Source of the DNA: a virus
Strand: one strand, 5' to 3'
DNA length: 21,549 bases
IMG/VR virus record: IMGVR_UViG_3300030328_003234
Location: 1-21,549 of that record
Shown one piece after another: positions 1-21,549 of the stretch. Position 1 is the first letter of the stretch. Every line of letters begins with the position of its first letter. A model generated the notes under the pieces. The model was not told the DNA's origin, made no database searches, and was given only the letters and a program-made list of their open reading frames with translations. Both the position numbers and the translations under genes were made by a program.

Positions 1-223
1 TATTTCCCTTATTATCTGTACCTGATTGTGTTCTTGTAAATGTAGCTTTACTTACAGCACTATATCCTGCATCTAATAAATCTTTTAACTCTACATTGCT
101 TCCTGCTGTTCTTGTATTGCCTTCGTTATCTGTTAAATAAACTACAGTATCAAATGCACTACCCGGTTCATCTGTATAAATAAATTGACTATCTACATCT
201 TCATTAGTTATTGGACTTGCCAT
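1..223 (-). CDS. Partial virion-region protein, N-terminal 74 codons
   Basis: The gene starts at an ATG whose A is base 223 and is cut by the left window edge. The stop of the preceding 436-residue gene overlaps this start (TAATG), and a good ribosome binding site, GAGGAG, lies about 8 bases upstream, so the start is well supported. The visible protein begins MASPITNEDVDSQF and is rich in Thr, Asp, Gly and Val (for example TDEPGSAFDTVVYLTDNEG), which suggests short beta strands typical of phage structural or decoration proteins. That is only an impression. Being last in the visible virion operon, it could be a fibre, decoration or head protein. No family is recognised. Confidence 0.85.
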   Translation of the reverse strand, partial: MASPITNEDVDSQFIYTDEPGSAFDTVVYLTDNEGNTRTAGSNVELKDLLDAGYSAVSKATFTRTQSGTDNKGN

Positions 224-1533
224 TAAAATTTCTCCTCGTATTTACTGTCGCCTAGTTTTCTACCTATAGCTTGATTTAATATATTCTTAGTATATTGATT
301 ACCTTCTTCTATACCTTCTTTTCTAGATTGAGATAACATATCTCCATAGCTTAAATATTTATATGAATCAAATTTACTATTTGATATAGGCATTTGTCTA
401 CCTTGATTAGTTAACATAGCTTGATTAAATTGTAGATACTGAGTATAAGAATTGCTACCTTTTAATTCATCAGGAGCACCTGCATCCCATATCTGTTGTA
501 ACTCATCTTTAACTTTTGCTTTACCTTCTGCTGTATCATACATACTTTGAAACTCTAACATTTTAGTTTTGTCATTTTTAATTTGCTGTCCGGCAAATCC
601 ACCAACAATATTATCTATTTGAGTATTAACATCTGCTGCATTTTTTGTTACCTCTGCAAGGAAAGTAGTGTTATTACCATAGATATCACCTTTAATACTA
701 TCAAAGTATTCATTAAAGTCTGAACCTAAATCTTTATCCATAAACATTTTTTCTACTATGTTTTTTAATATCGCTTCGTTTTGTATATTACCTTCAACCC
801 ATAATGCTTTTATATTTGCATATATATCAGGGTTATCAAATTTAAAATTACCTGCATAATCTGCTAACACAGAATCTAATATTGTTTCTTGTGAATCTTC
901 CCATGCTGCTAATGCACCCGGACCTGTTAGTTTTGCGTTAGTGTAATCTAATAAATTAAAATTAAACTCTGTACCCGGAGGTAATGCATCTTGTATTGAT
1001 TGTCTATTAATCTCTTTACCTGCAATTGCAGATTGAAATACTATATCTAATACCGCATCATACTCAGGAGTAAGATACTGTCCCCATTTCTTTATAAACT
1101 TTTCTGCTTGTACATTCATTAAATCAAATGGGTCAAAACCTCTTTGATTTAAATATGCTGACGGTAACTCATTCATTCTTCCTAAGTTAATTGAAGATGC
1201 TATAAAGTCATCACTTAAACTACTACCATCAAATACTTTTAAAGATTGTACCATTGATGCTGTGCCATCTTGGAATTGTACTTCTTCACCTACAGCAGGA
1301 CCATTAGGGTCTGTGTATTCAAAGAATGCAGCTACCTCTGTACCTTCTATAGTTGTTGTAAATACAACATAAAACACGTTACCTTTTCTATACAAAATAC
1401 TATTAGGATTAGTAGGTGTCTTACTTAATACAGGATGATATCCACTCTTACCTACATTAGGGTCCTTAGTTGGTGGTGCTGTATGTCCATCTATCATAGG
1501 TCCTTTGTACATTAAAGGAAATTTCTTTTTCAT
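223..1533 (-). CDS. Unknown virion-region protein, 436 aa
   Basis: Not recognised. The ATG overlaps the TGA of the 2551-residue gene (ATGA) and has a GGGAGG ribosome binding site a few bases upstream. The first ~100 residues look beta-rich (RKGNVFYVVFTTTIEGTEVA, residues ~49-68). The rest looks helical and acidic, with a charged C-terminus ending KYEEKF. There is no signal peptide, no membrane segment and no catalytic motif that I can name. Position after two giant virion-type genes and before another structural-looking gene suggests a head, neck or internal virion component. Length would fit a capsid protein, but the predicted mostly helical body does not look like an HK97-type capsid fold, so I do not call it one. 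Confidence 0.8.
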   Translation of the reverse strand: MKKKFPLMYKGPMIDGHTAPPTKDPNVGKSGYHPVLSKTPTNPNSILYRKGNVFYVVFTTTIEGTEVAAFFEYTDPNGPAVGEEVQFQDGTASMVQSLKVFDGSSLSDDFIASSINLGRMNELPSAYLNQRGFDPFDLMNVQAEKFIKKWGQYLTPEYDAVLDIVFQSAIAGKEINRQSIQDALPPGTEFNFNLLDYTNAKLTGPGALAAWEDSQETILDSVLADYAGNFKFDNPDIYANIKALWVEGNIQNEAILKNIVEKMFMDKDLGSDFNEYFDSIKGDIYGNNTTFLAEVTKNAADVNTQIDNIVGGFAGQQIKNDKTKMLEFQSMYDTAEGKAKVKDELQQIWDAGAPDELKGSNSYTQYLQFNQAMLTNQGRQMPISNSKFDSYKYLSYGDMLSQSRKEGIEEGNQYTKNILNQAIGRKLGDSKYEEKF

Positions 1534-4500
1534 TTAAGACCTCCCGGTATTGTATATATATCACGTGCACTTTCAAACTCATACTCTGTATCATCTAAAC
1601 GTGCATCTTTATCTTTGTTAAACATATCTAATTTACGCATCATTCTATTAACGAACCTTCTACCTCCACTATACCAATCTTGACTATAATTATAAGTCAT
1701 GTGTTTAGTATTTGCTAGGTCTGTGTAGCTTTTCTGTATGTTAGCTAACCATTCTTCTTCTGTTTCTGCTTTATAATTTTCTGCAATTAACTCGCTAGAT
1801 TGTCTTGCTTGTTCTAATTGCCTACCAATATTTCTTGGACCACCTTCCATAAGACCTTCAAAAATATTACCAACAACTCTAACTATATTTTCAGAACTTG
1901 TGTATTGTTCTTCTGCTGTATTGTATACGGCACTTTTAGTATTGTATGTAGCTTGATTTATAACGCCACTATTTAAATCTTGTTCTAGTTTTAATCTTTT
2001 CTTTTGTAAATTTTCTTTTGCTTTAGTTGGTGATTCCATAATTTTTTGTATAGGATAAAATATTTTATGTATTATTTCTTGTCCGGGTTGTGTGTATGCA
2101 TGCTCAATAAATTCTTCGTATGACATACCTACAGTATCTTTACCGTATGCATTAAAAGCATACACTATATCTGCTGCAAAGGCAGCGTGCATAAGTTTAC
2201 GGTAAGCTTGTTTAGGTCTAGCTACTAAGTTTTGTTTTAAGTATTGTGTTTTAGTATTTCTATACCAATCCTCAAAATCTGCTGCGTTAAATTCAACTCC
2301 CGGTTTTACAGGCATACCTAATACTTTCCATTTTCTTTGTTTAATTACTTTAGGGTCAGTATCAGATGCATAAACAGGTGCTGATAAATAATAACCAACA
2401 TACATTCTTGGACCTGCTTTACCTGCATGCTTATTATAAAAGTACGGTAACTCAGTAAGTGTTCTTAAATTTCTAAAATATCTTTTAAAAGGATTTATTT
2501 TTTCATAAGGAACTATAGATGATTGAGGACCTGCACCTGTATAATGTGTTAATTGCTTACCTCTACCTGTATTCCATTGATACTTAGCTCTACTATATCT
2601 AACGTTCCGTGCTCCATCTACTATGTTTTTTAACACACGAAAGTCTCTTGGTTGTTTTACTTTTTTAAATGGTGCACCTCTAAATGCATCTTTAAATGGG
2701 TCACCTTCACCAAAGTTAGGACCTCTAACTAATGCAGGTTTACTATCGTCATACAATAAAGAAAACTTATTACGTAACACTAAGTCACTTGGACCTTTAG
2801 GCGGACCTAACCGTATTGGTTCACCCTTAGGTTGTATTGTTTGCCAACCTACAGGTCCACGGTTTGCTAATTCTTTACCAATATATGGAACAATTTCTGA
2901 ACCCGGAATGTTTAATTTTCTTAAATGAGAAGTTATTTGTTGCATTTCTCTAGCGTATGTTCGTTCTATTCCTGTTCCCTGATACAAATCGTTTATTAAT
3001 CCTTCTTGTGAATCTTTAGCAAATTGCATTAAGAACATTCCACCAAAGTCTTTAAAGTTAGTAGCGTCTGCAGGTCCTATTGGAGGTGTAACTGACCTAT
3101 CATTTATTATTTTATATTTCTCTATAGTGTCATCCCACCATTGTCCTATAGTTCCATTATTGTAAAACTCGTCAGCTCTCATGTCATTAAATGTAGATTC
3201 ATATATGTTATAAGTACCTTGAAAAAATTCCTGTAATTGTTTGTTATCAGGAGTATTAGGTATCTGTGGTAAGTTTGCTATATTAATACCTTGGTCAAAT
3301 TTATGTTTCATATTAATAAAATGTAATTCATCCATCCCTTTTAATATTTGAAATTCTTTACTCTCAACTTTTGCAGGGTTAAACAAACCATCATCTTTGT
3401 CAAAAAATATAGTATCGTATAATTCATTAGCAAATTGCAACGCATTGTCTATTGTTTTCCTACCAAGTTTAGGTTCTGTTAAATCTAATAACACATCTAC
3501 ATATTGTGCTATTTCAAAGTTAACACCTTTTTTATTTAATACTTCTTGTATTTGCTTCATGTCTTCTATATCTAAAGATTTATTTCTAAGTTGGATAGGG
3601 GCAATAAAGGTAGTAATTAAAGCTGCGTTATCTAATTTTGCTTTTCCACCAAGTAATAATTTTTTATCTATCTTTAATTTTGCTAATGGGAAAGCACCAG
3701 CATCATCTAATCCATAGAAAGTTTTAGTTCCTTTTTCTGCTACAAACTCTCTTCCATATGATAACGCTCTAGCATTAGCCATCTTGAATGATTCTTCTAA
3801 ACCATTTTCTAAATACTCAAATGTAATTTCTAGTTTTCTTATATCTTCAGGTGCTGCATTAGCTAATGTTTCTTGTTTAATTTTTTGAAAGTATACTCTT
3901 GTACTTTCTATTTCTAATTGCATTTCTTTTAATAAAGCTTCCATATTTATATCTTCACTTAATGCGTCAGCATATAGATATGAATTTAAAAACCCGTTAC
4001 GTAACGTACTGTTACTGTGATTACCATCAAGACCTGTATTGTTTACAAAGTTTGTAGGTTGCTCTACTTCTAGTAAATGTGTTATAGCCATAGCTACTTC
4101 TTTAGACATAACCTCAGCTAATGATACATTCTTGTCTGCTAATACTAACTCTATATGATAGAAAGCATCTGCTCCTTTTGAAGGTGCAACAACAAATGGA
4201 TTAAAGTTTTTACCTTGGTTAGCTTTCACATCCCATTTGTCAGGAATATTAGATACTAATTTAAATTGTACACCTGTACCACGCATCATTCTGTTGTATT
4301 CAAATACTAAATCACTTAATCTTTTCTTTGATGTGTTTTTAATTTCGCTTACTCTTTCAGGCATTATCTCAAATGTATCGCCTGTGCCTGTCAACAATTT
4401 AAATACATTACCTTTAGTTATCTTGTTTTTAAATTCTTGCCAATTAAATTCTTCACCTATTCCTAATTTTGCTAGTTCTGCATTAAATACTTTTTCTATA

Positions 4501-7500
4501 TTTTCAGGACGAAATGCTAATCTTTTTAAATTACTTTCAAGAACAATCATCATCCAATCCATACTCCAAGTGTCTGCTGTCATTACTCTCCACAATTCAG
4601 GATAATCATTTTCAGGAAATACTTCTTTTATAGCCTTAGACATTTCTCCTTTATCTACATTTGGTACTGCTTCTCCTGATAATAGTTGGTCTGATACTTC
4701 TGTTATATACTTTCTAAGACTATTAGTATTGTTAAAATCTACTTCAGGTGGTACACCTTTATCTGTTAATCTATATACTTCATCTATTAATAATTTAAAT
4801 GTATTGTTGTCTACGAAAGATGCTTGAGCTATTAAAGGTAGTATTGTTTGCATACTGTTCTTCATTGCTTTATTGTTTATTACAATTGCACCATACTCAT
4901 CTGTAAATGCTTTTATAAATTTATCCTGAATAGCAGGATTTATATTTGTATCATTCATCATTAACGCTTGTAATGCTGTAGGAGATGAAGCAAAAAAGTT
5001 TTCTAATCCGTCTTTAAATATATGTGGTAATAAATTAGATGCAAATTCTTCAGTAAGCATTCTTGATTTATATAATTCATCACCATAATTTTCTATTTCA
5101 TTACCCATATAATGAACATTATCTTCTGCACCAAATAGATTATCTATCCTTAAATAATTTTCACCTAAATAAAAACCTGACCATTCATATAATATTCTTT
5201 GTAGTCCGGCAAAAGCGTCTACTGCATTGTCAGTAAATATTCCCATATTTTTAAATATCTTTCTTTGTGCAATAGCAGATTCAAGTACGTTCTTATAAAA
5301 ATTTTCAGGAATATCATCAGCCATAGAATCCATTACATCTTTTAAACTTTTTTCAAAAGTTTTTGCTTCAGGTTTTTTAGCATGATTTTCTAATCTTTCC
5401 ATTTGGTCAAGTAAATAATTATCTTCATCCGGTGTTAAATTACGTGGAGAACGTCCTTGCATTTCAGACTTTGTAAATTGCATTTCTATATCATTAACAA
5501 GCTCAGCAAATTCTTTTATCCATTTGTATTTAAGCCTGTTCTCACCATACTTAACAACTTCGTCTCCCCATTCTGTAAAAGTTTCTTGCAACCCTTCATA
5601 AAACTCTAGCAAGTCTGCTGCATCTGCACCTGTTATACCTTCAAATGATTTAAGTAATGCATCAAATAAATCTTCATTTGCACTAACTTTTGCTTCAGCC
5701 ATTCTTTCCAACGTGTCTACAAACTCTTCAGGTTCTAAACCTACCGGCATATCTGCATCTTCAAATTGTCCTGTAATTTTATCTATAGCTCTTAACAACT
5801 TGTAAGGTTCTGTTGCTTCTGGAAACTTAGACAACATTTCGTATTCTGCCATGTGTAATGCATTTATAGTTTCATATATCTTACTTGCTAACACTTCTTG
5901 ATGATTACCTAAAGTTGAGTTCATAATTTCTTCTAGCTTTTTATTATTTTTTAAATCATCTAAAGTAGATATTTCTTCCATGAATTGTTGTACTTGTTCC
6001 ATGCTTGATTGTAAGTTGTAACCTCTACTTGCTAATTCTTGTGCAATGTTTAATGTTAACGCATTTAATACTGCGTTATGATGTCCCATTGTTTTATAAA
6101 ACATAGCTAATTTTCCTAAGAAGTTATTCTTTCTAGCTATTTCTAGTTGCTTCATGTCTATTGGTTTTACTGCATTAGTAAGACCGTTATCATCAGCAAG
6201 TAATGCATTAACTATTTCCTGTAAAGATTCAGCCATGTATACATCTGAATTTAAATTAGCCATTAATCTTTCCATACTGAAATCTCTTGGACCAAATTCA
6301 TATGAAGTTAAGAATGCATACAAATCTATAAACAAAGGTTCTAATGCAGGGGCTACTATAAAAAGGTTTTGAACTGATGCAGGATAGTTTTGTTTACCTA
6401 TACGTGTTAGAGCTTTAGGGTCTTGACCATATGACCAATATCTTGAATTAAGTAATTGTGATTCTTCTATTGCACGTAATGATTCGTTAATAGCTTCTGC
6501 TTTTTTAGCTGCAGGACTTAGTACTTCTCCTACTTCTAATAGCCAAAATGGTTTTGGTTCTATTTTATTTTTAAACTTATCGTATCTAACCTTACCTTGA
6601 TTAAGTATATACTCTATTTGTCCTTGAGCTTCATATACTTTTTCCGGACCTTTTTCCCACAGGTTAGTTGTTGGATTTAATTTTGCAGATTTTTTAAATG
6701 TAGCAGTAGGGTTACCTAATAACTCCGTATAACGTTTTATAAAATCTTCTTTAGGATTAACTAATTTAAAGTTACCATCTTTCATTCTTTCTGTTTCACC
6801 AAACTTATATGGTTCTAATTTATCCCAACCTACAATATTTACTTTAGTTTCTTGACCTGCATCAAAGTTAGTTAATCTTAATTCAGGATTTGTTTCTAAT
6901 ATTTTTAAAGCTTCTGCCACAGTAGGAACATTCAATTTCTTTAACAGGTCTGCTTCTCTTATTAAGAAACCTTTTTGATTACCGTTACGTATTTGTTCTA
7001 CTTGTGATACTACATTTGGATTATTGTAATCAGGTCTCATAGTTGAACCATCTTTAACTGTCATAACCTTTTCCATAGGTTCATTATTTATAACATTGTA
7101 ATCATTTATAGCAACAGGAGATTTGGTATAGTCAGCTTTTACAGGACCACCTGTCATATTCTGTTTCATTATCTGTGGTTTAGCTAACTGTTCATAATAC
7201 AAATCAGGACTAATTAATGCTTGCACAATTCTTTGTGCTAAGTCTTTATAGTATCCACCAATAATATTGGTATCACCTGTTACGTGTATTTTATATGAGC
7301 TATCTGAAGGAAATAATTGACTAGCGTTTGTATCTTTATTTACAATTGTAAGTTGTCCATCTACTTTAGTTATAACATAACCTTTACCTAAAAGTTCTTG
7401 TACATATTCTTCCATAGCGTTTCCAAAAGTCTGATGATTAAAAGTAGCTAAGTCAATTACATAAGTATTGTTCCTTCCACCTTGTCCTTTTATTTCCCAA

Positions 7501-9922: not shown

Positions 9923-9923
9923 A

Positions 9924-11294
9924 CTAACCCAAATTACTAAGAATAGCCCATAGATTTGTACCATAATTTCTTTGCATGTTTCCTTCTGCGTAAGCTGCGT
10001 TATCTTCTACTGCCATTTTAGTTATGCTTTCTGATATTTTTTGTTCTATAAAATCTAATGGGTTAGACATAGGTTTAACAACACTAGAGGGTGCGTTACC
10101 TGTAATTCTATCTTGTTGTGCTTTCTTATAAATACTATTTGCTGTGCCATATTGGCTCATGTATTTACCTTCAGATAATTGTACGTCTTCATATATCTGA
10201 CCTATTTCTTTTGCTGCTACTGCTGCTAAATACGGATTCATCATACTACCTGTTATTGATTGCCATGTAGTTTTAGCATCAGCTATTCTTGATTGGAAAG
10301 AAGGTGTAACAATAATTTGCATATCTGCACCTAATTTTCTTTTTTCTTTAATTAAATTATCTGCACCTGTAACAAGGTAATTATGAAATATAGATTTCAT
10401 TTCAGGACTTGCTGCTACATCAGATAAATATGCAGCTATTGCTGATGTGTCATTAGATGCAAGTGCTTTTTCTAATCCACCAATATCTAAACCTGCTTCT
10501 TTAAAATCAGATAACAATGTCTGTGCTGCAGGTAAGTATTGTCCACCTCTGTTTAGTGTAGACATTAAATCTCGTAAACCACGAATAGTTGCTTGGTCTA
10601 GTTGATTAGGAGTAAATATAGTTCTATCTTCATCTCCTATATAATCTCCTAATAAACCTAACTCTACTAATCTTAGTTGTATATCTTGTAACCATGTTTG
10701 TCCACTTGCTTGTATGTGTGGGTCTGAATAAAGATTAGTTTCTACACCTACTTGAAATATAGGTACTGAACCATTGCCTGTAAGAGTTCTAGCTCCTATT
10801 GTTGGATTACCTGCAATACCATAAAATTCACCTGACATCATATTACCTATTATTCCTGTCATAGTTTTTTGATTTAAATCATCACCTAACATTTCATTTA
10901 ATGCTCTTTGTGACTCTTCCCATTCTGCATATTCTCTTTCGGCATCTGTCATTCTGCTTTGGTCAAGTATATCTCTCCACAAATCAGGTGCTTCTTGTAC
11001 CATTGTTGGTAACACCATTGCTAATTCTTCTTTACGTACTGTTAAAGCATTTATATTTCCGTCATAATAATTAAACAATTCTGTGCCTTGTTCCATTAAC
11101 ATTTGTTTTAATGCTGCCGCATCAGATGCTGATAAACCATGTGGGTTAGAATCAACTAAAAAATTTACTTGATTTTCTACTTGACCTACATTTCCAAGTG
11201 CTATTTCTTTAGTTCCATACGCTGTAAATAATTCTACAACAATAGCATACTCAAGCCATGGTACTATTTTGTTATAAGCTTCTTGTATTGTCAT
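9924..11294 (-). CDS. Putative internal virion protein, 456 aa
   Basis: The ATG overlaps the TGA of the 1721-residue gene (ATGA). Not assigned to a family. It is predominantly helical and Ala/Gln/Met-rich. Residues ~199-240 carry WLQDIQLRLVELGLLGDYIG followed by a Thr-Pro and a helix, loosely recalling the L-Q-x-x-L-x-x-L-G pattern of peptidoglycan-binding domains. The resemblance is weak, but it is suggestive next to a lysozyme-like gene. The C-terminal ~100 residues (SMMNPYLAAVAAKEIGQIYE onward) are helical with polar, Asn/Gln-rich linkers. No signal peptide or membrane segment. Position between the two giant genes suggests it is part of the same ejection complex. A tail or neck component is the alternative. 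Confidence 0.82.
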   Translation of the reverse strand: MTIQEAYNKIVPWLEYAIVVELFTAYGTKEIALGNVGQVENQVNFLVDSNPHGLSASDAAALKQMLMEQGTELFNYYDGNINALTVRKEELAMVLPTMVQEAPDLWRDILDQSRMTDAEREYAEWEESQRALNEMLGDDLNQKTMTGIIGNMMSGEFYGIAGNPTIGARTLTGNGSVPIFQVGVETNLYSDPHIQASGQTWLQDIQLRLVELGLLGDYIGDEDRTIFTPNQLDQATIRGLRDLMSTLNRGGQYLPAAQTLLSDFKEAGLDIGGLEKALASNDTSAIAAYLSDVAASPEMKSIFHNYLVTGADNLIKEKRKLGADMQIIVTPSFQSRIADAKTTWQSITGSMMNPYLAAVAAKEIGQIYEDVQLSEGKYMSQYGTANSIYKKAQQDRITGNAPSSVVKPMSNPLDFIEQKISESITKMAVEDNAAYAEGNMQRNYGTNLWAILSNLG

Positions 11295-14200
11295 AATTCA
11301 AATCCGTCAAATAATGGTAATTCCATTGTATCAGTATCTCTAAATTCTCGCACACCTACATTATAAAACCAAAAATAAAATTCAGGGGATATACGGATAA
11401 GTTTATCTGCAACTTCTTGTAATAAAGCACGTTCTTGTTGTGCATCAGCTCTAGCTAATGATGCAGTTGTATCTCCTGTTCTGAATTGTAAACCACCTAA
11501 CATTAAATCTCTTTGTTGTAAGTAAGCATTTAATGCATTTGTTATAGGTAAGTCTTTTACTTTAGAAGAAGTACCATTAGGTAATTTAACTACAGTATCT
11601 GCTTCAGTTACTAACATACGTTTTAATTCCTCCATTTGAGAACTTACAGGCACAGCACTTATAGATGGATACTCTTTTATCTCATATACGTCTGCTAGCT
11701 CTATAACGCCCATTTTATACATATTATCTCTACCTGCGGCATCTAGTGCCATGTTTGGATTTTCGTATAAATTACGTCTTAAATTTTCTTTTGCTAAATT
11801 AAACAATGCTGTTTTATATCCATCTTCATACCATTCATCTAAGTCTCTAGCTTTTCTAGCACCTGTAATAAAACTGTTAGTATATGCAGTTAAATAAAAT
11901 TCATCAGTAGGTGCATCAGGAAACAACCAATAAGCAGTATTAGGATTACGTTCAAATAACTCAGGATTAGCTGCGGCAAAGAATGTACCTTCTTCTGTAT
12001 AAGATGTAGGTATAGTTTCTTTAGATTTAGAAGTAGTTAATGCTACAGGATTAAATCCAAATTGTTTAACAAACCAATCTGTAGCTCTTAATTCATCACC
12101 ATCAAATCTAGCTAATGCTCTGTAGTATGCGTCACTAAACAAAGTAGTTTCAAACCAAGCAGGGTTTTCTTCTATTTGGTCAGGAGTTAAATGTAATGCA
12201 GCACCGGGTACAGAAGTTTTGTATTCATACTTTACAAATGCTTGTGTAGGTAATACACCCTGTGTTACAGCTCTATACGTAACAATAGCTGTTGCACCTT
12301 TTTTAATTCTATCTAATGATTTAGCTTGTAACTCAGGAGTAGAATCATCATACAAACCTATATCTATATGAACTTTCATTACGTCAATTAAAGTATCTTC
12401 ATATAGTTTTCTTTTTTGTGGGTCATCGCTCATTATAGATTGTAATTTTCTAACCCAACCCGGTAAGAATTGGTCTTGTAATTCGTCAGGTCTACCAAAA
12501 GGAAATATTAATTTTTCTACTTGTGGTTCTAAATCTCCGGGTGGCAATATGTAATTTATAGGTACTGTACCTATAGGACCTAATCCTAAACCAATACCAC
12601 CTGTAATCATGTTTAATCCTTCTAATCTAGAAGGTGTTTGTACTCTAGCTTGTACATCTCCTACTTGTTCCTCTGCTGTACCTACAGACCATTTAGTTAA
12701 TAACTTATCGCCAAATTGTGAAAAGTTATAAAACTCTTCTCCTGTTTGTGGGTCTGTATATACAAAACCGCTTTTCTTTGCACCGTCAATACCCATTTGT
12801 GCATACCTAGGTATTGCAGGATTAGCTGATAATAATCTTTTCCATGTTCCTAATACTTCAATATATACTTCTGCGAATGGAATTATATTACGTAGTATCT
12901 CAGAAGTAACATGCCTTTTGTTTAAGTCATACAATAGTTCTTGTGTCTTAGTTAACGCTGTAGCTTTAGCTAACTCATCTACTTGTACAATATCAGCATC
13001 TCTTAATGTGCGTGTATAGTTACCTGTCTTTTGTTCTTTAATAGCATTTTTAATTTTTTTACCTAATGAACCTTTCATGACATTAGATGCGTAAGCTTGT
13101 TTAGTTACTTGGTCACGTAATACATTATCCATATGTGGTAATAGGTCTGCTATTTCGTCCCAATAAAATTGTCTAAATGCAGGTGAACGTGACAATTGAT
13201 TAGTAGGTCTAGACATAAACATATCAAATAAATTTTCTAATGTACTATCTAAAGATGAACCCCATTCATGTGATACATCAAATCTTTGTGCTTTAACTGT
13301 TGGTGGTCTATTAGGAATTTTTTTTGTACCTAACCATTTTGAAAATTGTAACCACGCTTCTTGTGATTCGCCTTCACCAAGATATATAATTCTATCTTTC
13401 TTTGTTACAGGATTAACTATACCTCTTAATGTAAATTGTGATATCTGTCCACCTTCTCTAGGTACAGCACCTAAGAAATCTTGTATAAGTTCTGTATCAC
13501 CTTGTTTAGTTATACGATATGTAAAAGCATCATTAATCCATTCTTCAGGATTTATTTCATCACCCATTCCATAAACACGTCCTGTATTTTTATTTATTAC
13601 TTCATATGCACCACCTGTTTCATAATGTACACGTGCATATACTGATTCAACATACTCTCTAGCTTTTTGGTCAGATTCCAAAATTATTTTTTTACTATTA
13701 ACAAACGCATCATCTACATTTCCTGCAAAGGATTCTCTTATGTAACGTAAGTCACCATTTACAAATCTCTCTACTATTTCATCTAAACTTGCTTGTGTCA
13801 TACCCGGTCTATGAAATTTTGCTAATTCTTTAACTAATGCATCTTTTTCTAATATAAATAAACCTCTAGCCCAACCTTTATCAAATCCTTCTATATCAGG
13901 TCCTTTTGGTCTGTTAACATATTTCCAATATCTAGAACGTTCAGGGTCTACACCTAACCAACCACCATGTCCCATAGACATAGCACCTATATGGTCATAA
14001 TGATGAGAAGTAACATTGCCTGTAATGTCATACATACCTTTACCAAACTTATCTTTAAATGCTGTTAACTTAGTTACAGCTAACTCTTCATCACCTGTAA
14101 ATCTTGTATATAGTTTTAATAACTTACTTCTTTCCGCAGGTGTTCTACCTAGTACCCAACCAAACCATGAAGTAGGGTGATAAAATACTGAATCCATATT

Positions 14201-16456
14201 TGCTGAAGCCATACGTAATTGTTCTTCACCTATAACACGTGCTGTCCATGCAGGTCTTAATAACACTAAAGGTTTCCATATTTTCTGCATAACACCACTA
14301 GCTAATCTTGTAATTGCTGCTTCTTGTAGCTGTATAGCGTCATCTATAAACTCACCACGTTTAGTTACTCTTGTAGCTTTAGCAACAAAACCTTTATAAA
14401 ATAAATCTTCTATTGCTTCTAGTCCTGTTAATGAACCATGAGCTACGTCATCTAATTCTCTTTTTACTCCTAGTTCAATAGAACGTGCTAAAGGTTTAGT
14501 CATAAATCTTTGTACACTAGCAGTATCTGCTATACCTAAAGTTAATACTTTTCCTACAAATGTACGTAATGGTCCTACAAGTTTTACAAATGTTCTAATA
14601 TCAGGCATTGGTATAAAACCTTCAGCTACATATTCTGATATAAGCTGTGCTGTTGGTTGTGATAAAAATACTTCTTCTCCATTTACTTTTAATGATTTAA
14701 ATTTTTGTCCGGGTATTATCTGACCTGTATTAATACCTACACCTTCTTTTTGTCCTAATGTAACGAAATACTTTCTTGTTTCATCTACAGATGCCCACCA
14801 TTTTTCTACACCTTTAAGAACTGCTTCAGGTATACCTGCTTCTTTTAAACTGCTTGTAATATCATTTAATACACCTGTACCTGCAGGGTTATTCCAAATA
14901 TCTACAATAGTATTAAAGTTATTTACAAAATCTAAATCGTCTGTTGTAGCTTGCCTTGCTGCCATTTCAGCTATCCTATCTAATACTTCATCTTGTTTTT
15001 TAACAGATACATTTGCAAACTTCATCCACTCTGCTAATTGTTTATATGTTCTATCTAAGTTTCTAACTTCTAATTTTTCTACAGGAAATGCTGATGCTAG
15101 CATTTGTCCTAATGCTGTACCATCTGCACCTAAAGACCTAACTGCAGTAGCTGAACCTACATCAAAACCAAATTGAAAACCTTTACCTTTTGCTGCAGAG
15201 TACAATCCACCTGCAACTCTAGTAGGAACTGCACGTGTTAATAAAGAAGTTTTATCTAATCTATGTTTAATAGAAGTACCCATATGTGGTACTAACAAAT
15301 CAATTACAGCTTCAGGTGTCTTAGCTTTTTTAATTGCACCGTACAAAGCTGCAGTACCTTCATAATTTAATAATGCTTGTATTTCTTTATGAGTTGTAGC
15401 ATTAGATAAATATTCAGCAATACGATAACCTGATTCTGATTTTCTAAAGTAATCTTGTAATGCAGGTTTGTTTATTACACGTCTATACATAGTGTCTACT
15501 AATCCTGCAGAACGTGCTGCACCTAATGCTTCATTACTTTTTATTACATCTTTTGTATATATAGAAGGAGCTTTTTTAACTGACTTAGCTAATTTACCAT
15601 ATGCACTACCTGCCCATAAAGCAGGGTCTGTGCCTAATCTCCATGCACCATCAAATATTGTAGACATTAATTTAAACTGCCAATCATCAGGTTCAAATAA
15701 TTCTACTGCTATATTTCTACCAATAGATAAAGGAACTGTTCCATTGTTAGTTGTATAACTACCAAAGTTAGCTACCTCTTCTCTATAATTACTTGTTATC
15801 GGCTCACCCAACTCTTCTTGTAATCTTTGTCCTACAATTGCAGGGTCAGCACCCATACCAACTAATTCTTGATATATTTCTGTTTCTTCAGCTTTTGTAC
15901 TTTCTCCTAATACTCCATCACCTAAATTAACTTTTTCATTATTTTTCATTTTGTTAATTGCTTGTACAAATGGTGTATCAGGTTGTGCTCTATAATAATT
16001 CATAACATCATCAGCATATGTAGGGTCTATAGTAGACATAGCACCCCAAGCAACAATGTTCCAAGGTTTCATACCTCTATCCATTAATGCCTGTGCATTA
16101 GCTTTATATGTTTTATCTATAGAGTCAGCCATAGATTGTAAACCTGTAAAAGCCATACGTAATGCCGCCTTACCTGCTTCTTTAAATTTACTTTGTTCTT
16201 CTGCTTCGTTTTGTAACCACTTGTCTACTATGGCATCCCACTCAGGTCTACTTGGGTCTAATCCATATAATGAGGCACCTACAATAGTATCGGTAGGTAA
16301 GAAACCAAATGCTACAGAATTTTCTTGTAACGAAGAAGTAAACTGTGGATTTTGTGCAACGTAGTTTCTAAACGCTAAACGTTTCTGATGAGTAGCTTCT
16401 GCTTGTTTAGAAGCTTTATCTTCCATCCAAGGAGGCATATGATAAAATAATGCCAT
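11291..16456 (-). CDS. Giant putative internal virion protein, 1721 aa
   Basis: An uninterrupted 5.2-kb frame whose ATG shares its A with the last base of the upstream stop (TAATG). It starts MALFYHMPPWMED. No enzyme domain is recognised. Notable segments: a Trp/Arg-rich patch LLRPAWTARVIGEEQLR (732-748); a His cluster HHYDHIGAMSMGHGG (818-832); an aromatic helix IIPFAEVYIEVLGTW (1191-1205); a Gly-rich hydrophobic stretch with no charge at 1281-1307 (LNMITGGIGLGLGPIG and following) that could insert in a membrane; and an aromatic-rich C-terminus (EFYFWFYNVGVREF, 1692-1705). Size, helix-rich composition and location after the portal suit a podovirus-type internal virion or ejection protein. 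A tape-measure role is possible, but no repeats or long coiled coil are seen and no tail genes are adjacent. Confidence 0.85.
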   Translation of the reverse strand: MALFYHMPPWMEDKASKQAEATHQKRLAFRNYVAQNPQFTSSLQENSVAFGFLPTDTIVGASLYGLDPSRPEWDAIVDKWLQNEAEEQSKFKEAGKAALRMAFTGLQSMADSIDKTYKANAQALMDRGMKPWNIVAWGAMSTIDPTYADDVMNYYRAQPDTPFVQAINKMKNNEKVNLGDGVLGESTKAEETEIYQELVGMGADPAIVGQRLQEELGEPITSNYREEVANFGSYTTNNGTVPLSIGRNIAVELFEPDDWQFKLMSTIFDGAWRLGTDPALWAGSAYGKLAKSVKKAPSIYTKDVIKSNEALGAARSAGLVDTMYRRVINKPALQDYFRKSESGYRIAEYLSNATTHKEIQALLNYEGTAALYGAIKKAKTPEAVIDLLVPHMGTSIKHRLDKTSLLTRAVPTRVAGGLYSAAKGKGFQFGFDVGSATAVRSLGADGTALGQMLASAFPVEKLEVRNLDRTYKQLAEWMKFANVSVKKQDEVLDRIAEMAARQATTDDLDFVNNFNTIVDIWNNPAGTGVLNDITSSLKEAGIPEAVLKGVEKWWASVDETRKYFVTLGQKEGVGINTGQIIPGQKFKSLKVNGEEVFLSQPTAQLISEYVAEGFIPMPDIRTFVKLVGPLRTFVGKVLTLGIADTASVQRFMTKPLARSIELGVKRELDDVAHGSLTGLEAIEDLFYKGFVAKATRVTKRGEFIDDAIQLQEAAITRLASGVMQKIWKPLVLLRPAWTARVIGEEQLRMASANMDSVFYHPTSWFGWVLGRTPAERSKLLKLYTRFTGDEELAVTKLTAFKDKFGKGMYDITGNVTSHHYDHIGAMSMGHGGWLGVDPERSRYWKYVNRPKGPDIEGFDKGWARGLFILEKDALVKELAKFHRPGMTQASLDEIVERFVNGDLRYIRESFAGNVDDAFVNSKKIILESDQKAREYVESVYARVHYETGGAYEVINKNTGRVYGMGDEINPEEWINDAFTYRITKQGDTELIQDFLGAVPREGGQISQFTLRGIVNPVTKKDRIIYLGEGESQEAWLQFSKWLGTKKIPNRPPTVKAQRFDVSHEWGSSLDSTLENLFDMFMSRPTNQLSRSPAFRQFYWDEIADLLPHMDNVLRDQVTKQAYASNVMKGSLGKKIKNAIKEQKTGNYTRTLRDADIVQVDELAKATALTKTQELLYDLNKRHVTSEILRNIIPFAEVYIEVLGTWKRLLSANPAIPRYAQMGIDGAKKSGFVYTDPQTGEEFYNFSQFGDKLLTKWSVGTAEEQVGDVQARVQTPSRLEGLNMITGGIGLGLGPIGTVPINYILPPGDLEPQVEKLIFPFGRPDELQDQFLPGWVRKLQSIMSDDPQKRKLYEDTLIDVMKVHIDIGLYDDSTPELQAKSLDRIKKGATAIVTYRAVTQGVLPTQAFVKYEYKTSVPGAALHLTPDQIEENPAWFETTLFSDAYYRALARFDGDELRATDWFVKQFGFNPVALTTSKSKETIPTSYTEEGTFFAAANPELFERNPNTAYWLFPDAPTDEFYLTAYTNSFITGARKARDLDEWYEDGYKTALFNLAKENLRRNLYENPNMALDAAGRDNMYKMGVIELADVYEIKEYPSISAVPVSSQMEELKRMLVTEADTVVKLPNGTSSKVKDLPITNALNAYLQQRDLMLGGLQFRTGDTTASLARADAQQERALLQEVADKLIRISPEFYFWFYNVGVREFRDTDTMELPLFDGFEL

Positions 16457-16872: not shown

Positions 16873-17059
16873 CGGGTTCCTCCGGTACAAATTCTATTCT
16901 TAAAAATCCTAAACCCGGAAAATATATCTCAGGCATAGCTAATGTCTCATTTACTTCGTTGTATGTTTCTATTTTATGCATATGTCTTTCACGCAACGTT
17001 TCTGCTACACTAACGTCATAATTAAATTCTTTCCATATAATTTCTTTAAACTCTTCCAT
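16853..17059 (-). CDS. Small acidic virion-region protein, 68 aa
   Basis: The ATG overlaps the portal stop (TAATG), and GGAGG lies upstream inside the portal's last codons. The 68 residues begin MEEFKEIIWKEFNYDVSVAE. The first half looks helical, followed by a short beta-like hydrophobic segment (MPEIYFPGLGFLRIEFV, 42-58) and an acidic tail (PEEPDVEETY). The 3' end overlaps the next gene by 20 bases, with that gene's ribosome binding site inside this coding sequence. No family recognised. Tight placement between the portal and the next gene, and the conserved-looking reading frame, make it a probable real gene, perhaps a portal or head-assembly partner. Confidence 0.75.
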   Translation of the reverse strand: MEEFKEIIWKEFNYDVSVAETLRERHMHKIETYNEVNETLAMPEIYFPGLGFLRIEFVPEEPDVEETY

Positions 17060-18789
17060 TAACCCATTCCTCCAAATGCTTGAGCAACACTTGGCATACC
17101 ACCTTGTTGTTGCATCATCATAGCTTGTGCAGCAGCTTGTTGTTCTTCTTGTTCATCTTGTGCTTGTTCAAAAAAGTTTTCTAATATAGTTACCATATCT
17201 TTTGGAGATTTATATATAGAACTTAATGCTGACATAGCCTGCATGTTACCTTGTTGTGCTTGTGCAAGTAAAGAATCAAACAACACTCTTTCTGCTTTTT
17301 CTTTTGTAATTCTATCATTAATAGATTGTAAGTTGTCTAAACCATCCATTTCTTCTTGCATAGTTTGTTTGTCTATAATACCTGCTTGTAATAACTGTAA
17401 GCCTGTTACAATTTTTTGAGGTTCATCAAAAGATGCCATAGCTCCATACTTACGTATTGTTTTATATGCACCTTTAATATCTACATCAGGTTTATAACTT
17501 TCTTCAAAAACACTACCTCTATAGACACCGGATATAGAACGTTTAACATTACCATGAACTAATTCATCATACTCTAATCTTTTGTAATCTACTTCTTGTA
17601 AAGCTGTAGTTAATATTGTGTGATACTCTCTAACCATTTGACCAACACCGCTATTTAATTCCTCTAGTCCTCTACCGGTAACAAAAGAGTTAGGAGATAT
17701 AGCATCATCTTGTACAGGGTATCCTGCAACAACACGTAGGTGTCTTTCTAATCTAGATACTTGGTCAAACAATTGATAAGGTAAATTAGTTACAGGTTTT
17801 ACAACTTGTGTACCCGGAGACAAATAATTTACAGAGTGTCTACCTTTTCTATATTTGCCTGATTCTAATTCACCAACAATGTTTGTTTCTGTAAATACTG
17901 CATCTTCCATAGCAATAACTGACATAATATTTATTTTTGCCATAGCTGACATTAAACCTATAACTTGGTCAAACTGTCCTTGTAATGCATCGAAAGAAAA
18001 TCTTTTTGCTACAACAAATGCAGGTCCTGATTTTAATGGGTTAGGTACAAAGTCTACAATTTTTCTACTAGCTACATGTACAACATGTGTTCCTAGTTCG
18101 TTCATGTATTCTACTATTACTTCACCACCACGTGAACTTTCCCATCTCTCTGCATCAGGAGATGATATAGATGCTGTACCTGTTATAGGTACGCCACCCG
18201 GTGCTTTTCTTTTATTCTTAGTATTGAAATAACCTTTTAGTTCAGGATACATTTGTATTAAATCTGCTTCAGGTATTCTACGTATAACTCCTAGTTCATC
18301 AGGTTGTTGTGCTGTACCGTAGTAACCCGGATAACAATCGTATGGGTCTCTTAATACGGCACAAGGATATGGTTTACCTGTAGGGTCGTATTTAGTTTGT
18401 ATAGTCCAAACAACAAATCCATAACCCGGTAACCATCTACCTATCTGTGGTAATTGCATATGTAAATCTTGATGGTCATCATATGCGTGTATAATTCTTT
18501 CTAGCTTGTCTCTTCTATCTTTAGCTCTAACGCTATCTTTATTTACAGACAATGGTATTTCTAAGTTAGGTACCCTACCAATTTTTTGTGCAATCCTGTC
18601 TAATGCAGATAATAATAAGTTAGGTGCGGGTAAATCAGAATCAGCCATAGCAGCATTAGCACCTAGTAATGCTTGTATTCCTTCTGTACCACCGTTAATA
18701 ATTCTTCTAAATTTATCTCTATCAGGTATTGCTTTATCGTGTAGTGCTTTTAATTCCACTACTCTATCTATAATGTTGTCTACTTTCAT
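17059..18789 (-). CDS. Portal protein, 576 aa
   Basis: The portal is the dodecameric ring at the capsid vertex through which DNA is packaged and ejected. The call rests on position directly after the large terminase (1-base gap), a length typical of the family, and portal-like sequence. That includes the RDPYDCYPGYYG segment (147-158), a central helical region with VIGLMSAMAKINIM (276-289), and SPNSFVTGRGLEEL (365-378), a pattern common in this group just before the stem and wing helices. The C-terminal ~36 residues are Gln/Ala/Met/Gly-rich (EEQQAAAQAMMMQQQGG) and likely disordered or a short barrel. The ATG follows the terminase TGA after one T. I am confident of portal function, less so of the precise subfamily. 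Confidence 0.9.
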   Translation of the reverse strand: MKVDNIIDRVVELKALHDKAIPDRDKFRRIINGGTEGIQALLGANAAMADSDLPAPNLLLSALDRIAQKIGRVPNLEIPLSVNKDSVRAKDRRDKLERIIHAYDDHQDLHMQLPQIGRWLPGYGFVVWTIQTKYDPTGKPYPCAVLRDPYDCYPGYYGTAQQPDELGVIRRIPEADLIQMYPELKGYFNTKNKRKAPGGVPITGTASISSPDAERWESSRGGEVIVEYMNELGTHVVHVASRKIVDFVPNPLKSGPAFVVAKRFSFDALQGQFDQVIGLMSAMAKINIMSVIAMEDAVFTETNIVGELESGKYRKGRHSVNYLSPGTQVVKPVTNLPYQLFDQVSRLERHLRVVAGYPVQDDAISPNSFVTGRGLEELNSGVGQMVREYHTILTTALQEVDYKRLEYDELVHGNVKRSISGVYRGSVFEESYKPDVDIKGAYKTIRKYGAMASFDEPQKIVTGLQLLQAGIIDKQTMQEEMDGLDNLQSINDRITKEKAERVLFDSLLAQAQQGNMQAMSALSSIYKSPKDMVTILENFFEQAQDEQEEQQAAAQAMMMQQQGGMPSVAQAFGGMG

Positions 18790-18790
18790 A

Positions 18791-20716
18791 TCACCACGGT
18801 GCTTCGTTCATATCTGTTTCTTCAAACCCATAATAGCTAGGTTCGTAATCATATTCCATACTAGCATAAGATGTCTTACTTATACGCCTTATAACTTTCA
18901 TTGGAAACCAACTAGCCATAACAATGTCACTTACAGTTTTATTTTTCTTTTGTCCTTTAGAAGCAAAATAAATTAATTGTTTTTTGTATTGGTCTATCTT
19001 AACTTGTGATTCAGGATTACCGTATGGTAAGACTATTTTGTTCTCTTCAAACAAACTAGCCATAGCTGTAACACCAAACTGTGGGTCCCATTTATTTTTA
19101 TAAGTTTCATGTCCTTCTAGTATTACACCGTTCATATTACAGAACTCTTTAATTCTTGTGTCCTGTCTAATAGCTTTTTGAAAGTTGTTCTCTTCTATAA
19201 CCCAATGATATAAATCATATCTCTGTTTCCATTCCTGTATAACTCTTAATGCTTGGTCTATACCTCCACCGTGTTGATTATCTATATCTACTAAAACCAT
19301 AGCAAAAGGGTCAAACGTAACTGCCCATAAAACTGCAGCTTGATAACCTGTAGCTGCCGGGTCAAGTCCTGCTACTAAATAAGAATTACTAGGAACTACA
19401 CCAATAGCTGCATCATACTTTTTACATGCCTCTATAGATTCAGGATTAAAAATTTGTAACCCACCTGCTATAGCTTTATTAAGATATACCATCTCATATC
19501 TCTGTAAACCACCTGTTGTCATAGAGTCTTGTCTTCTTGACTCTAACCATTTGAAAGTTCTAAATCCTGACCACAACATACAATCATAATGTTCTTCTAC
19601 ATTTGCTTCAGGTATTGAACAACTACTATCGTGTGCTTCTTCTACTATATTTTCCCATGCTTGATTATCAAGTAATGAACTATATAAATCTTCAGGATGC
19701 TGTCTAGAACCAATAACAACAATAGCTGTATGTTCCTCTTTACGTGAACCTAAAGTTGTTGTCCACCAATTCTTTGTATGTTCTCTAGCAGAAGGTTGTA
19801 CAGTAGAACTATGGTCCTCAATGTCATCTGCAATAATTAAGTCACAGTCTCTTGATAGAATTTTACCGCCTCTACCAATACCAACCATAGTTGGAGATTT
19901 AATTCCTGATACTGTTCTAGTAGCTACAGTAAAACCTGTTTGTGACCATGACTTACCTGTACGTGTAGCAGGTTTAAAAGTACCACCCGGTCCAACAAAA
20001 TCCTCTGCTAACTTTTCATTTGTCTCTAATTGGTCAAGTACAGATGCTACAGAGTTCTTAGCAATATCTTCGTTACCACCTACCCACATAATACGTATGT
20101 TAGGATTTTTACATATTTCCCAAATACAAAAGTGTATTAGTAGTTCTGTCTTGCCGTGTCTAGGAGGACTTAGTATTTGTAACTGCCCACCTTCTTTGAT
20201 AGCCTTAAGTATGTTTTTAATCCAATTTGTATGGAAAGGTGCTGTCTGAAATGGTACGCCCTTCTCTGTTAAGAAATAACGTTTACGAAACTTGGAAAAA
20301 GATTTTAATGATTTTTTTGCTTCTTCAGGTATTGACCATTCAGCCTGCTCCATCTCACGAGCCATATCCTCTTTATAAGCAGCAAACATTCGAGATACAT
20401 GAGCCACAGTACATTTCATGTCTTCTGATACTTCTGCCTGTTCAATGCGTTCTTCAGCTAAATCCCTTGCATAACCAAGCGATATAAATTTTTCATAGAG
20501 AGGTCCACGTCTTGGTGAGGTCCTACCTTCTTTATCTTTAGAGTAAGTAGGGGATTTATTAATTTCTTTTTTTTCTATTAAGTATTCTTTACCTTCTTCT
20601 TTAGCACGTTGTACACGCTTATCCCTATTCCATTTACATTGTTTAGAACAATATTTTCTTTGTCCTTTAGGTAGCTTATTATTACAGTCGGGTAGCTCAC
20701 ATACTATATTTGGCAT
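18791..20716 (-). CDS. terL: Terminase large subunit, 641 aa
   Basis: This is the ATPase and nuclease that drives DNA into the prohead. The Walker A motif is SPPRHGKT (183-190) and Walker B is CDLIIADDIED (291-301). The C-terminal RNase-H-like nuclease carries Asp452 (AGLDPAATG), acidic VIEENN (506-511) and Asp597 (VSDIVMASW). Residues 1-30 add a Cys4 set (C6, C11, C23, C27; CELPDC and YCSKQCKW) that resembles a small zinc finger, followed by a Lys/Arg-rich linker. This makes the protein longer than many terminases. The ATG at 20716 has no ribosome binding site; the preceding bases are TCTATAAT. The frame is open upstream only to a TAA near 20781, with no other usual start codon. A separate small terminase gene is not seen in the window. 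It heads the visible virion operon. Confidence 0.97.
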   Translation of the reverse strand: MPNIVCELPDCNNKLPKGQRKYCSKQCKWNRDKRVQRAKEEGKEYLIEKKEINKSPTYSKDKEGRTSPRRGPLYEKFISLGYARDLAEERIEQAEVSEDMKCTVAHVSRMFAAYKEDMAREMEQAEWSIPEEAKKSLKSFSKFRKRYFLTEKGVPFQTAPFHTNWIKNILKAIKEGGQLQILSPPRHGKTELLIHFCIWEICKNPNIRIMWVGGNEDIAKNSVASVLDQLETNEKLAEDFVGPGGTFKPATRTGKSWSQTGFTVATRTVSGIKSPTMVGIGRGGKILSRDCDLIIADDIEDHSSTVQPSAREHTKNWWTTTLGSRKEEHTAIVVIGSRQHPEDLYSSLLDNQAWENIVEEAHDSSCSIPEANVEEHYDCMLWSGFRTFKWLESRRQDSMTTGGLQRYEMVYLNKAIAGGLQIFNPESIEACKKYDAAIGVVPSNSYLVAGLDPAATGYQAAVLWAVTFDPFAMVLVDIDNQHGGGIDQALRVIQEWKQRYDLYHWVIEENNFQKAIRQDTRIKEFCNMNGVILEGHETYKNKWDPQFGVTAMASLFEENKIVLPYGNPESQVKIDQYKKQLIYFASKGQKKNKTVSDIVMASWFPMKVIRRISKTSYASMEYDYEPSYYGFEETDMNEAPW

Positions 20717-20748
20717 ATTATAGAAATATACTACAACATATTGTGTAT

Positions 20749-20784: not shown

Positions 20785-20793
20785 GGTTATCCT

Positions 20794-20807: not shown

Positions 20808-20832
20808 GTCTCACGCAAGTGAGACTTTTTGC
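20801..20832 (+). terminator. Intrinsic terminator hairpin, plus strand
   Basis: GTCTCAC-GCAA-GTGAGAC (20808-20825) is a perfect 7-bp stem with a GNRA tetraloop followed by TTTTT. The stem can extend through two G-U pairs and GCAAA/TTTGC to 14 bp, and those G-U pairs form only in plus-strand RNA. This is a textbook Rho-independent terminator for plus-strand transcripts. On the minus strand the hairpin is followed by CCTTTGCC, a poor terminator. All genes to its left run on the minus strand, so it would end an antisense RNA over the terL start or block read-through to the right. Confidence 0.7.
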
Positions 20833-20880
20833 TTTATTCTGTAAGTATGCTAAGGTAAGTAGACAAATACTAATTATCAA
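20833..20880. other. AT-rich spacer, no gene
   Basis: A short AT-rich stretch between the terminator hairpin and the candidate structured RNA. It would have to hold the plus-strand promoter of that RNA, but no clear -35/-10 pair is seen. On the minus strand TTGATA (20875-20880) is -35-like but lacks a well-spaced -10. Confidence 0.4.
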
Positions 20881-21109
20881 GTAAAAGGAACAGGTAAAGG
20901 AGAGACCGGGACTCTAAAAGCTGAGGATACGTGGCAGTATAAACTAGAAAGGCAAACTCAGTACCCAAGACCTTTAAACAATAATTTTTCAAGCCGACCC
21001 CTCTCTATGCCCGCTCACGCCAAACACGAGAACACAGGACAAGGACTTTAGTTGTAGTTCCTTTTACTCTCTCTTTCTATTACTGCTGAAGTCCTTACCC
21101 TGTCTTTTT
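20881..21109 (+). ncRNA. Candidate structured RNA with pseudoknot-type pairing
   Basis: No ORF occupies this stretch, which looks richer in G and C than its surroundings. Helix 1 is a perfect 11-bp long-range pairing of 20881-20891 (GTAAAAGGAAC) with 21057-21067. Nested inside are AAAGG/CCTTT (20896-20900 with 20971-20975), GGGA/T-CCC with one bulged A (20908-20911 with 20962-20966), and CTGAG/CTCAG (20921-20925 with 20957-20961). Helix 2 pairs 21034-21048 (ACAGGACAAGGACTT) with 21089-21103, 13 of 15 positions matching. One arm of helix 1 lies in its loop, giving an H-type pseudoknot or a switch. Helix 2 is followed by CTTTTT, which favours the plus strand. I do not recognise the class. It could instead belong to the minus-strand terL leader, since most pairs also form there. 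Confidence 0.38.
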
Positions 21110-21303
21110 ATAAGAGAGATATTTACCAATAATATTCTAAGGTATAACGTTACATAAGAAGTCCCACCCCATGTTAAACCCCAACTTTACCTGCCCATGA
21201 TATACGTGCGGTGCAAGGCTTACAGGATTTGCGTATGTGTTGTTGTTATCTTATATTCGTTACATGTGTTGTGTTGTGCTGTGTGTATATGTCTTCGTTT
21301 GTT
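21110..21303. other. Non-coding low-complexity stretch, GT-rich on plus strand
   Basis: About 190 bases with no convincing gene. From ~21230 the plus strand is a run of TG/TTG words and the minus strand is AC-rich and purine-poor in structure, as seen in unstructured mRNA leaders. A plus-strand frame crosses it (21197-21454), but it encodes only Cys/Val/Leu low-complexity sequence. AACGTT at ~21146-21151 is a short palindrome. Confidence 0.5.
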
Positions 21304-21435
21304 CTATCCCCCCCCTTTGTTGATATTGTATGTCTTGTTATGTCTTATGTTTGTGTTCCCTAGTCGTGTATCGTTGCAAAGAGTATCCACCATTGATATT
21401 CCTAATCTTATAGTGTTGAATAGAACTTCGTTCAT
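21304..21435 (-). CDS. Doubtful small ORF, 43 aa, ending at a G8 run
   Basis: An ATG at 21435 opens 43 codons (starts MNEVLFNTIRLGISMVDTLC) ending in GGG GGG GGA TAG. The terminal G8 tract (plus-strand C8, 21308-21315) means that a one-base slip or sequencing error would extend the product by about 17-23 residues. There is no ribosome binding site. The ATG lies about 13 bases from the start expected for the promoter at 21455-21481, so it would be nearly leaderless. The composition is Asn/Thr/Arg-rich and matches no family. Probably chance; listed because it follows a good promoter. Confidence 0.18.
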   Translation of the reverse strand: MNEVLFNTIRLGISMVDTLCNDTRLGNTNIRHNKTYNINKGGG

Positions 21436-21445
21436 TGGATATATA
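21416..21445 (+). promoter_or_regulatory. Weak plus-strand promoter candidate
   Basis: TTGAAT (21416-21421), an 18-base spacer and TATATA (21440-21445) make a fair sigma70-type match on the plus strand. It would be divergent to, and face into, the stronger minus-strand promoter beside it. No plus-strand gene is visible before the window edge, and AT-rich DNA yields such matches by chance. Confidence 0.2.
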
Positions 21446-21549
21446 GTTGCGTGAATGATAGCATAATTTCTAACTTGTCAATCTCCTTAGGTTCCCCCCT
21501 AAAGGCACCCCCCAACTCAATATGACAACCCCATAAATCACGCTTTGAT
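21432..21549 (-). CDS. Doubtful 3' end of an upstream gene, 38 codons
   Basis: One minus-strand frame is open from the right window edge to a TGA at 21432, ending KLEIMLSFTQLYIQ. Its stop overlaps the ATG of the 43-codon ORF in an ATGA pattern like the junctions of the main operon. Against it: GGG and AGG codons and a high third-position GC unlike the real genes here, G-runs in the sequence, a second frame also open to the edge, and a good promoter lying inside it. Confidence 0.2.
   Translation of the reverse strand, partial: SKRDLWGCHIELGGAFRGEPKEIDKLEIMLSFTQLYIQ
21455..21481 (-). promoter_or_regulatory. Putative sigma70-type promoter for the terL operon
   Basis: On the minus strand TTGACA (21476-21481, a perfect -35) is followed after 15 bases by TATCAT (21455-21460) preceded by TGC, an extended -10. 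The short spacer is compensated by the TGn element. Transcription would start near 21448 and give terL a leader of roughly 660-730 bases crossing the candidate structured region. This is the best promoter seen in the window. Confidence 0.5.
21485..21505. repeat. Inverted repeat beside the promoter
   Basis: CCTTAGG (21485-21491) and CCTAAAGG (21498-21505) can pair with one bulged A around a C-rich 6-base loop. The repeat lies 3 bases from the -35 of the minus-strand promoter, so it could be an operator or the end of an upstream transcript. There is no T-run, so it is not a clear terminator. Confidence 0.3.

What the first reader, a model, noticed from the sequence alone, without database searches (positions are those of the whole stretch)
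1..21549. No GATC anywhere in the window; Asp codons appear to be chosen to avoid it
Reading the whole window I found no GATC, although at about one-third GC some 60 would be expected. The codons show selection: Asp is often GAT, but where the next codon begins with C it is GAC in every case checked (terminase LDPAATG, FDPFA, WDPQF; portal RDPYD, YDPTG; Asp-Gln and Asp-His pairs too). GANTC, TCGA, CCGG, CATG and GTAC sites remain, so the loss is specific. This is the known signature of escape from a GATC-cutting restriction system (Sau3AI, DpnII or MboI type) or from GATC methylation control, and gives a clue to the host.
Basis: partly seen in the sequence, partly recalled or inferred. Interest (0 to 1): 0.62.

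Follow-up and report, generated by a model that had tools for sequence, protein, structure and literature searches.

The report
Marine phage stripped of restriction sites
This piece of an uncultured marine phage genome contains no GATC at all and almost no CCAG/CTGG, and dozens of its relatives share the GATC loss but differ in which other short words are missing; this is the known trace left by host DNA-cutting defence enzymes, here unusually strict and readable lineage by lineage.

Summary
GATC occurs 0 times where 43-63 are expected (47 ± 4.6 from synonymous-codon shuffles). Asp before a C-starting codon is GAC in 45 of 45 cases. But the loss is not specific to GATC: CCAG/CTGG is missing just as strongly (2 against 87 expected). 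CCGG, cited as a retained control, is raised because CCG is the escape codon for Pro-Gly.

The window is the structural module of a roughly 44-kb uncultured tailed phage. In 82 related contigs (1.14 Mb) GATC occurs 0 times against about 3,060 expected. Other words are on or off by lineage: CCAG is missing only near the window, CCGG almost everywhere else, and CATG, GGCC, GCGC, GCGG, GGATG, CAGTG and some six-base palindromes in particular branches. Many are known restriction-modification (R-M) specificities. Two outgroup relatives keep GATC. The searched relatives carry no N6/N4 or Dam-type methyltransferase; one divergent member does.

Best reading: site elimination under restriction by hosts with differing repertoires. 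Host and enzymes were not identified; an Actinomarinales-like host is only weakly indicated. The phenomenon is well known; the strictness, the asymmetric CCAG target and the CCGG/CCAG exchange are notable.

The parts
1..21549 (.). Whole window: 0 GATC; 2 CCAG/CTGG in all
18791..20716 (-). Terminase large subunit, 641 aa
   Evidence: PHROG 38, E = 1.6e-61
17059..18789 (-). Portal protein, 576 aa
   Evidence: tblastn to Streptomyces phage portal proteins, 23-24% identity over about 90%
11291..16456 (-). 1721-aa protein, conserved in all 16 contigs compared; probably virion-associated (inference)
1530..9185 (-). 2551-aa protein, found in the window's clade and G007; probably virion-associated (inference)
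3697..3700 (+). One of two residual CCAG sites (CCAGC)
5819..5822 (-). Second residual CCAG site (CCAGA on the minus strand, CTGG on plus)

Best explanation
The phage lineage has lost the target sites of restriction endonucleases met in its hosts. Each unmodified GATC in an infecting genome risks cleavage; variants without the site survive, and nearly every GATC can be removed by a synonymous change (Asp GAT to GAC before C; Arg/Gly codons ending GA before TC). GATC restriction (DpnII/MboI/Sau3AI type, perhaps alternating with DpnI-type enzymes that cut methylated GATC) has been met by the whole family for a long time. Other specificities (CCAG or CCGG, CATG, GGCC, GCGC, GCGG, GGATG, CAGTG, HindIII/PvuII/MfeI/XbaI-type sites) are met by particular lineages, which lose those sites and regain others when the pressure ends. 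Shown: the absences, the codon route, the family-wide and lineage-specific pattern, and the lack of N6/N4 and Dam-type methyltransferases in the searched relatives. Inferred: that host endonucleases are the cause, and which ones.
For: GATC 0 in 1,138,141 bp of 82 family contigs against about 3,060 expected. Escape is by codon choice. Other words are near zero in some lineages and normal in others, for example CCAG 0/161 in G005 and 118/138 in G007, GGCC 0/12 in G019 and 48/19 in G010; CCGG 5 in 643 kb outside the window's clade and 150 in 125 kb inside it. Palindromes are strongly enriched among missing 4-mers and 6-mers. CCAG and CCAGA are known methyltransferase/R-M specificities (PMC10689673; PMC7973814). 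No PF01555 or PF02086 gene in 36 family records. Outgroup relatives L122 and L078 keep GATC.
Against: No host is proven and no cognate endonuclease was found. The actinobacterial order weakly linked to the family has few Dam-like (6 of 42) or cytosine-5 (9 of 42) methyltransferases. A large survey found almost no avoidance of type III and IIG sites, so the missing asymmetric words need orthodox type IIS-like or unusual systems. One member with its own methyltransferase also lacks GATC.
Confidence: 0.87

Rival explanations
1. The phage itself encodes a GATC-specific nuclease used to degrade host DNA, and has purged its own genome of the site.
For: Loss is absolute across the family whatever the lineage; many early genes have no known function; a calcineurin-like exonuclease homologue is conserved in most of the larger contigs.
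Against: No known sequence-specific endonuclease family among 90 representative proteins. Many different words are missing in different lineages, which would need a different nuclease each time.
Confidence: 0.05
2. GATC is lost to escape Dam-directed mismatch repair (MutH nicking) or Dam-dependent control, as proposed for phiX174.
For: phiX174 has no GATC and this has been linked to mismatch repair (PMC5014478, abstract).
Against: Does not explain CCAG, CCGG, CATG, GGCC and other missing words. The host group weakly indicated has few Dam-like genes.
Confidence: 0.05
3. Chance, mutational or codon-usage bias, or an assembly artefact.
For: GC is only 33% and codon use is strongly skewed.
Against: Synonymous-codon shuffles keep codon use and still predict 47. 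The pattern recurs in contigs from many metagenomes. Contig G038:C36 carries the terminase gene at both ends about 44 kb apart, i.e. a full genome length, and has 0 GATC. The apparent exception L028 is probably chimeric or recombinant.
Confidence: 0.01

Closest known systems
Recognition-site avoidance in phages (Rusinov et al. 2018, PMC6286503)
   Same: Complete or near-complete loss of R-M sites; GATC among the sites most consistently avoided.
   Different: That survey used phages with known hosts and found avoidance mostly for orthodox type II sites. Here the host is unknown, loss is absolute over a family, and asymmetric 4-5 base words (CCAG, CCAGA, CCAGC, CGATG, CAGTG) are also missing.
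phiX174, a phage without GATC (PMC5014478)
   Same: No GATC in the genome.
   Different: Small ssDNA phage; linked there to mismatch repair. The present phage also lacks other words.
H. pylori A45 R-M repertoire (PMC10689673)
   Same: Methylates GATC, CATG, CCAG, GCGC, GGCC and TCGA, words missing in one or another member of this family.
   Different: A bacterial repertoire, not a phage; no suggestion that Helicobacter is the host.
Streptomyces phages such as Immanuel3 and WRightOn
   Same: Related terminase (27-28%) and portal (23-24%) proteins.
   Different: Distant; different hosts; their site content was not examined here.

Membership tests
R-M recognition-site avoidance in a phage | Site far below expectation under a composition- and codon-preserving null | tested here: met
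   0 against 47 +/- 4.6; family 0 against about 3,060
R-M recognition-site avoidance in a phage | Removal by synonymous choices in coding sequence | tested here: met
   GAC before C 45/45; xGA before TC 0/18
R-M recognition-site avoidance in a phage | Missing words resemble R-M targets (palindromes, known specificities), not arbitrary words | tested here: met
   Palindrome odds ratios 62 and 109 (genomes are related); CCAG and CCAGA known
R-M recognition-site avoidance in a phage | Phage does not rely on its own methylation of the site | tested here: met
   No PF01555/PF02086 in 36 records; exception G038:C30; cytosine-5 type checked only in 90 representative proteins
R-M recognition-site avoidance in a phage | Host encodes the cognate endonuclease | tested here: inconclusive
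   Host unknown; the weakly linked order has a Dam-like methyltransferase in 6 of 42 genomes
Escape from Dam-directed mismatch repair (phiX174-like) | GATC alone is missing | tested here: not met
   CCAG/CTGG equally missing in the window
Tailed phage (Caudoviricetes) | Terminase, portal and major capsid genes | tested here: met
   Terminase and portal in the window; SU10-type capsid in relatives

The most novel reading that the evidence does not exclude
The missing-word set of each lineage is a readable record of the restriction enzymes of its uncultivated host. The family shows exchange of targets, with CCGG regained where CCAG is lost, and CCAG pressure implies a host system that fully restricts at an asymmetric four-base word.
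Probability: 0.5. Interest if true: 0.58.

Novelty: new member of a known kind. Interest (0 to 1): 0.45.

Why it matters
Restriction-site loss in phages is old knowledge, mostly from isolates with known hosts. Here an uncultured marine family shows absolute loss of one site and clear lineage-by-lineage gain and loss of others. That would allow the R-M repertoires of unknown hosts to be inferred from phage sequence, host guesses to be tested, and the rate at which sites are lost and regained to be measured. It also points to CCAG-specific restriction as worth looking for in marine bacteria.

Tried and rejected
Loss of GATC alone: rejected, CCAG/CTGG is as depleted. L028 as a GATC-bearing relative: rejected, its 7 GATC lie outside the homologous stretch 705-3175, probably a chimera or recombinant. 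WhiB as an actinophage marker: absent in all 37 records. MAG RS345 as proof of host: weak; it holds two family phage contigs of about full length or more, and only 1 of 42 genomes of its order has a terminase match. Order-wide conserved N6/N4 methyltransferase as a GATC R-M system: no evident endonuclease beside it in three loci (read by eye), and its specificity cannot be read from homology. GATC depletion in candidate host genomes: only slight, for example 212 of 254. tRNA genes as a host link: none found. The conserved 638-aa early protein gave no match in isolate phages.

Full report
Check of the observation. The window (21,549 bp, 33% GC) has no GATC. Expectations are 63 from base composition, 43.5 from a maximum-order Markov model and 47.0 ± 4.6 from shuffles that exchange synonymous codons within each gene. 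The codon claim holds exactly: Asp before a C-starting codon is GAC in 45 of 45 cases, against 73 of 389 elsewhere. Arg/Gly codons ending GA never precede TC (0 of 18, against 334 of 758 elsewhere).

CCAG and its complement CTGG are missing just as strongly: 2 against 87 ± 6.4. The same codon logic applies: CCA before G is 1 of 124 against 82 of 188 elsewhere, and xCT before GG is 1 of 301. CCGG, quoted as a retained control, is in fact raised. Pro before Gly is 16 CCG and 5 CCC, never CCA or CCT, because those would make CCAG or CTGG. So the specificity argument fails, but the selection argument is strengthened.

What the sequence is. All main genes lie on the minus strand: terminase, portal, a 1721-aa and a 2551-aa protein, and others. 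It is a virus record with relatives of up to 41-45 kb in IMG/VR. The nearest isolates are distant: terminase 27-28% and portal 23-24% to Streptomyces phages, and the relatives' major capsid 27-30% to Mycobacterium phages.

The family. Eighty viral loci were fetched with the terminase, and fifteen contigs of 23-45 kb were read whole or nearly so. Over 82 contigs and 1,138,141 bp there is no GATC where about 3,060 are expected; many of these contigs are close relatives, so they are not independent draws. L028 seemed an exception, but its GATC sites all lie outside the stretch it shares with its near-identical relatives. Two more distant relatives, L122 and L078, do contain GATC, so the loss is a property of this branch and not of the gene set.

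Lineage-specific words. With the synonymous-codon shuffle as expectation, relatives lack further words, each close to zero in some lineages and normal in others. CCAG: 0 of 144 and 0 of 161 in G003 and G005, but 118 of 138 in G007, which sits inside the same clade. CCGG: 5 copies in 643 kb outside the window's clade, 150 in 125 kb inside it. CATG: 0 of 61 in G010, 112 against 88 expected in G028. GGCC: 0 of 12 in G019, 48 against 19 in G010. GCGG (counted as CCGC): 0 of 14 and 0 of 21 in G017 and G022. GGATG: 0 of 30 in G033. CAGTG: 0 of 34 in G005. In the sister clade CCAGA and CCAGC are missing while CCAGG and CCAGT are near expectation. L008, which falls within the window's clade on a branch of its own, has six CCAG, all followed by G or T, so it looks intermediate. 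Six-base palindromes AAGCTT, CAGCTG, CAATTG and TCTAGA are missing in several lineages. Palindromes are strongly enriched among missing words (odds ratios 62 for 4-mers and 109 for 6-mers; the genomes are related, so the p-values are overstated). On the terminase tree CATG needs 4 changes, GGCC 5, GCGC 4, CCGG 2 and CCAG 2 (a quick tree, and the states were set by thresholds).

Mechanism. This is what escape from a changing set of restriction enzymes would leave. Many of the words are known specificities. A CCAG methyltransferase is confirmed in H. pylori A45, which also methylates GATC, CATG, GCGC, GGCC and TCGA (PMC10689673), and CCAGA is a type IIS system in N. meningitidis (PMC7973814). 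HindIII, PvuII, MfeI, XbaI, NlaIII, FokI and AciI match other words (own knowledge of enzyme specificities). The window's relatives do not appear to protect themselves by methylation: no PF01555 or PF02086 gene in 36 records and no methyltransferase family listed for 90 representative proteins (the 25 best of 30 families were shown). One divergent member, G038:C30, does carry such a gene and still has no GATC. GATC may be lost so completely because hosts of both DpnII type (cut unmethylated) and DpnI type (cut methylated) exist, so that methylation cannot help; this is inference.

Host. Weak hints point to low-GC marine actinobacteria. The nearest structural proteins are from actinophages, and two family phages of about full length were binned in a 1.1-Mb Actinomycetota MAG, with base composition near that of its order among the few genomes compared. 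The order is taken to be Actinomarinales from genome size, GC and title; no name was given by the tools. Against this, WhiB is absent, only 6 of 42 genomes of that order have a clear Dam-like methyltransferase, 9 of 42 a cytosine-5 one, and a paper on Actinomarinales mentions R-M systems only in some genera's flexible islands (PMC7771536). A methyltransferase of the N6/N4 family is conserved in about 36 of 42 genomes, but in the three loci read it stands among housekeeping genes with no evident endonuclease beside it, and its target is unknown. The host is therefore open.

Comparison with the known. Site avoidance is a well documented anti-restriction strategy, complete or almost complete in about a tenth of phage genomes, and GATC was under-represented in all 46 phages whose hosts encode the type IIM enzyme (PMC6286503). 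phiX174 also lacks GATC and has been linked to mismatch repair (PMC5014478), but that cannot account for the other missing words here. What is unusual is the absolute loss over a family whose terminases are as little as 55% identical to the window's, the loss of asymmetric 4-5 base words, and the visible exchange of CCGG for CCAG. This is a new and informative member of a known kind.

Noticed in passing
G038:C30:9920-10678 (locus L173:9920-10678): A divergent phage of the family encodes its own N6/N4 DNA methyltransferase (252 aa), the only one seen in the family, and still has no GATC.
   Followed up: partly
L168:7161-7997 and orthologues in about 36 of 42 genomes of the order of G038: Conserved N6/N4 DNA methyltransferase (about 280 aa) among housekeeping genes (near the SufB gene), with no evident endonuclease beside it; a possible orphan regulator of unknown target.
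   Followed up: partly
L081 (OX376641.1, Caudovirales sp. ct2KA10): In 11.5 kb AGCT, CATG, GATC, GGCC and CCGG are all 0 (expected 15-42 each): another phage with several missing four-base palindromes.
   Followed up: no
L137 (JAAFIV010000024.1, Ignavibacteria MAG): In 20.5 kb GATC 0 of 57, GGCC 0 of 52 and CCGG 4 of 67 expected, on a contig with a distant terminase match.
   Followed up: no
L109:2215-3327 (G005): Tryptophan halogenase gene in one relative of the window, 44% identical to a gene of cyanophage S-RIM4.
   Followed up: partly
L145:1465-3323 (G057): Dam-family methyltransferase next to a gene that reads like a GIY-YIG nuclease (by eye, not searched) and near a second methyltransferase: a possible R-M system of the weakly linked host order.
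   Followed up: no
L028 (IMGVR_UViG_3300032087_003315): Contig appears chimeric or recombinant: only 705-3175 matches the family, and a 304-bp segment (78% identical) is present at both 119-422 and 650-953.
   Followed up: yes
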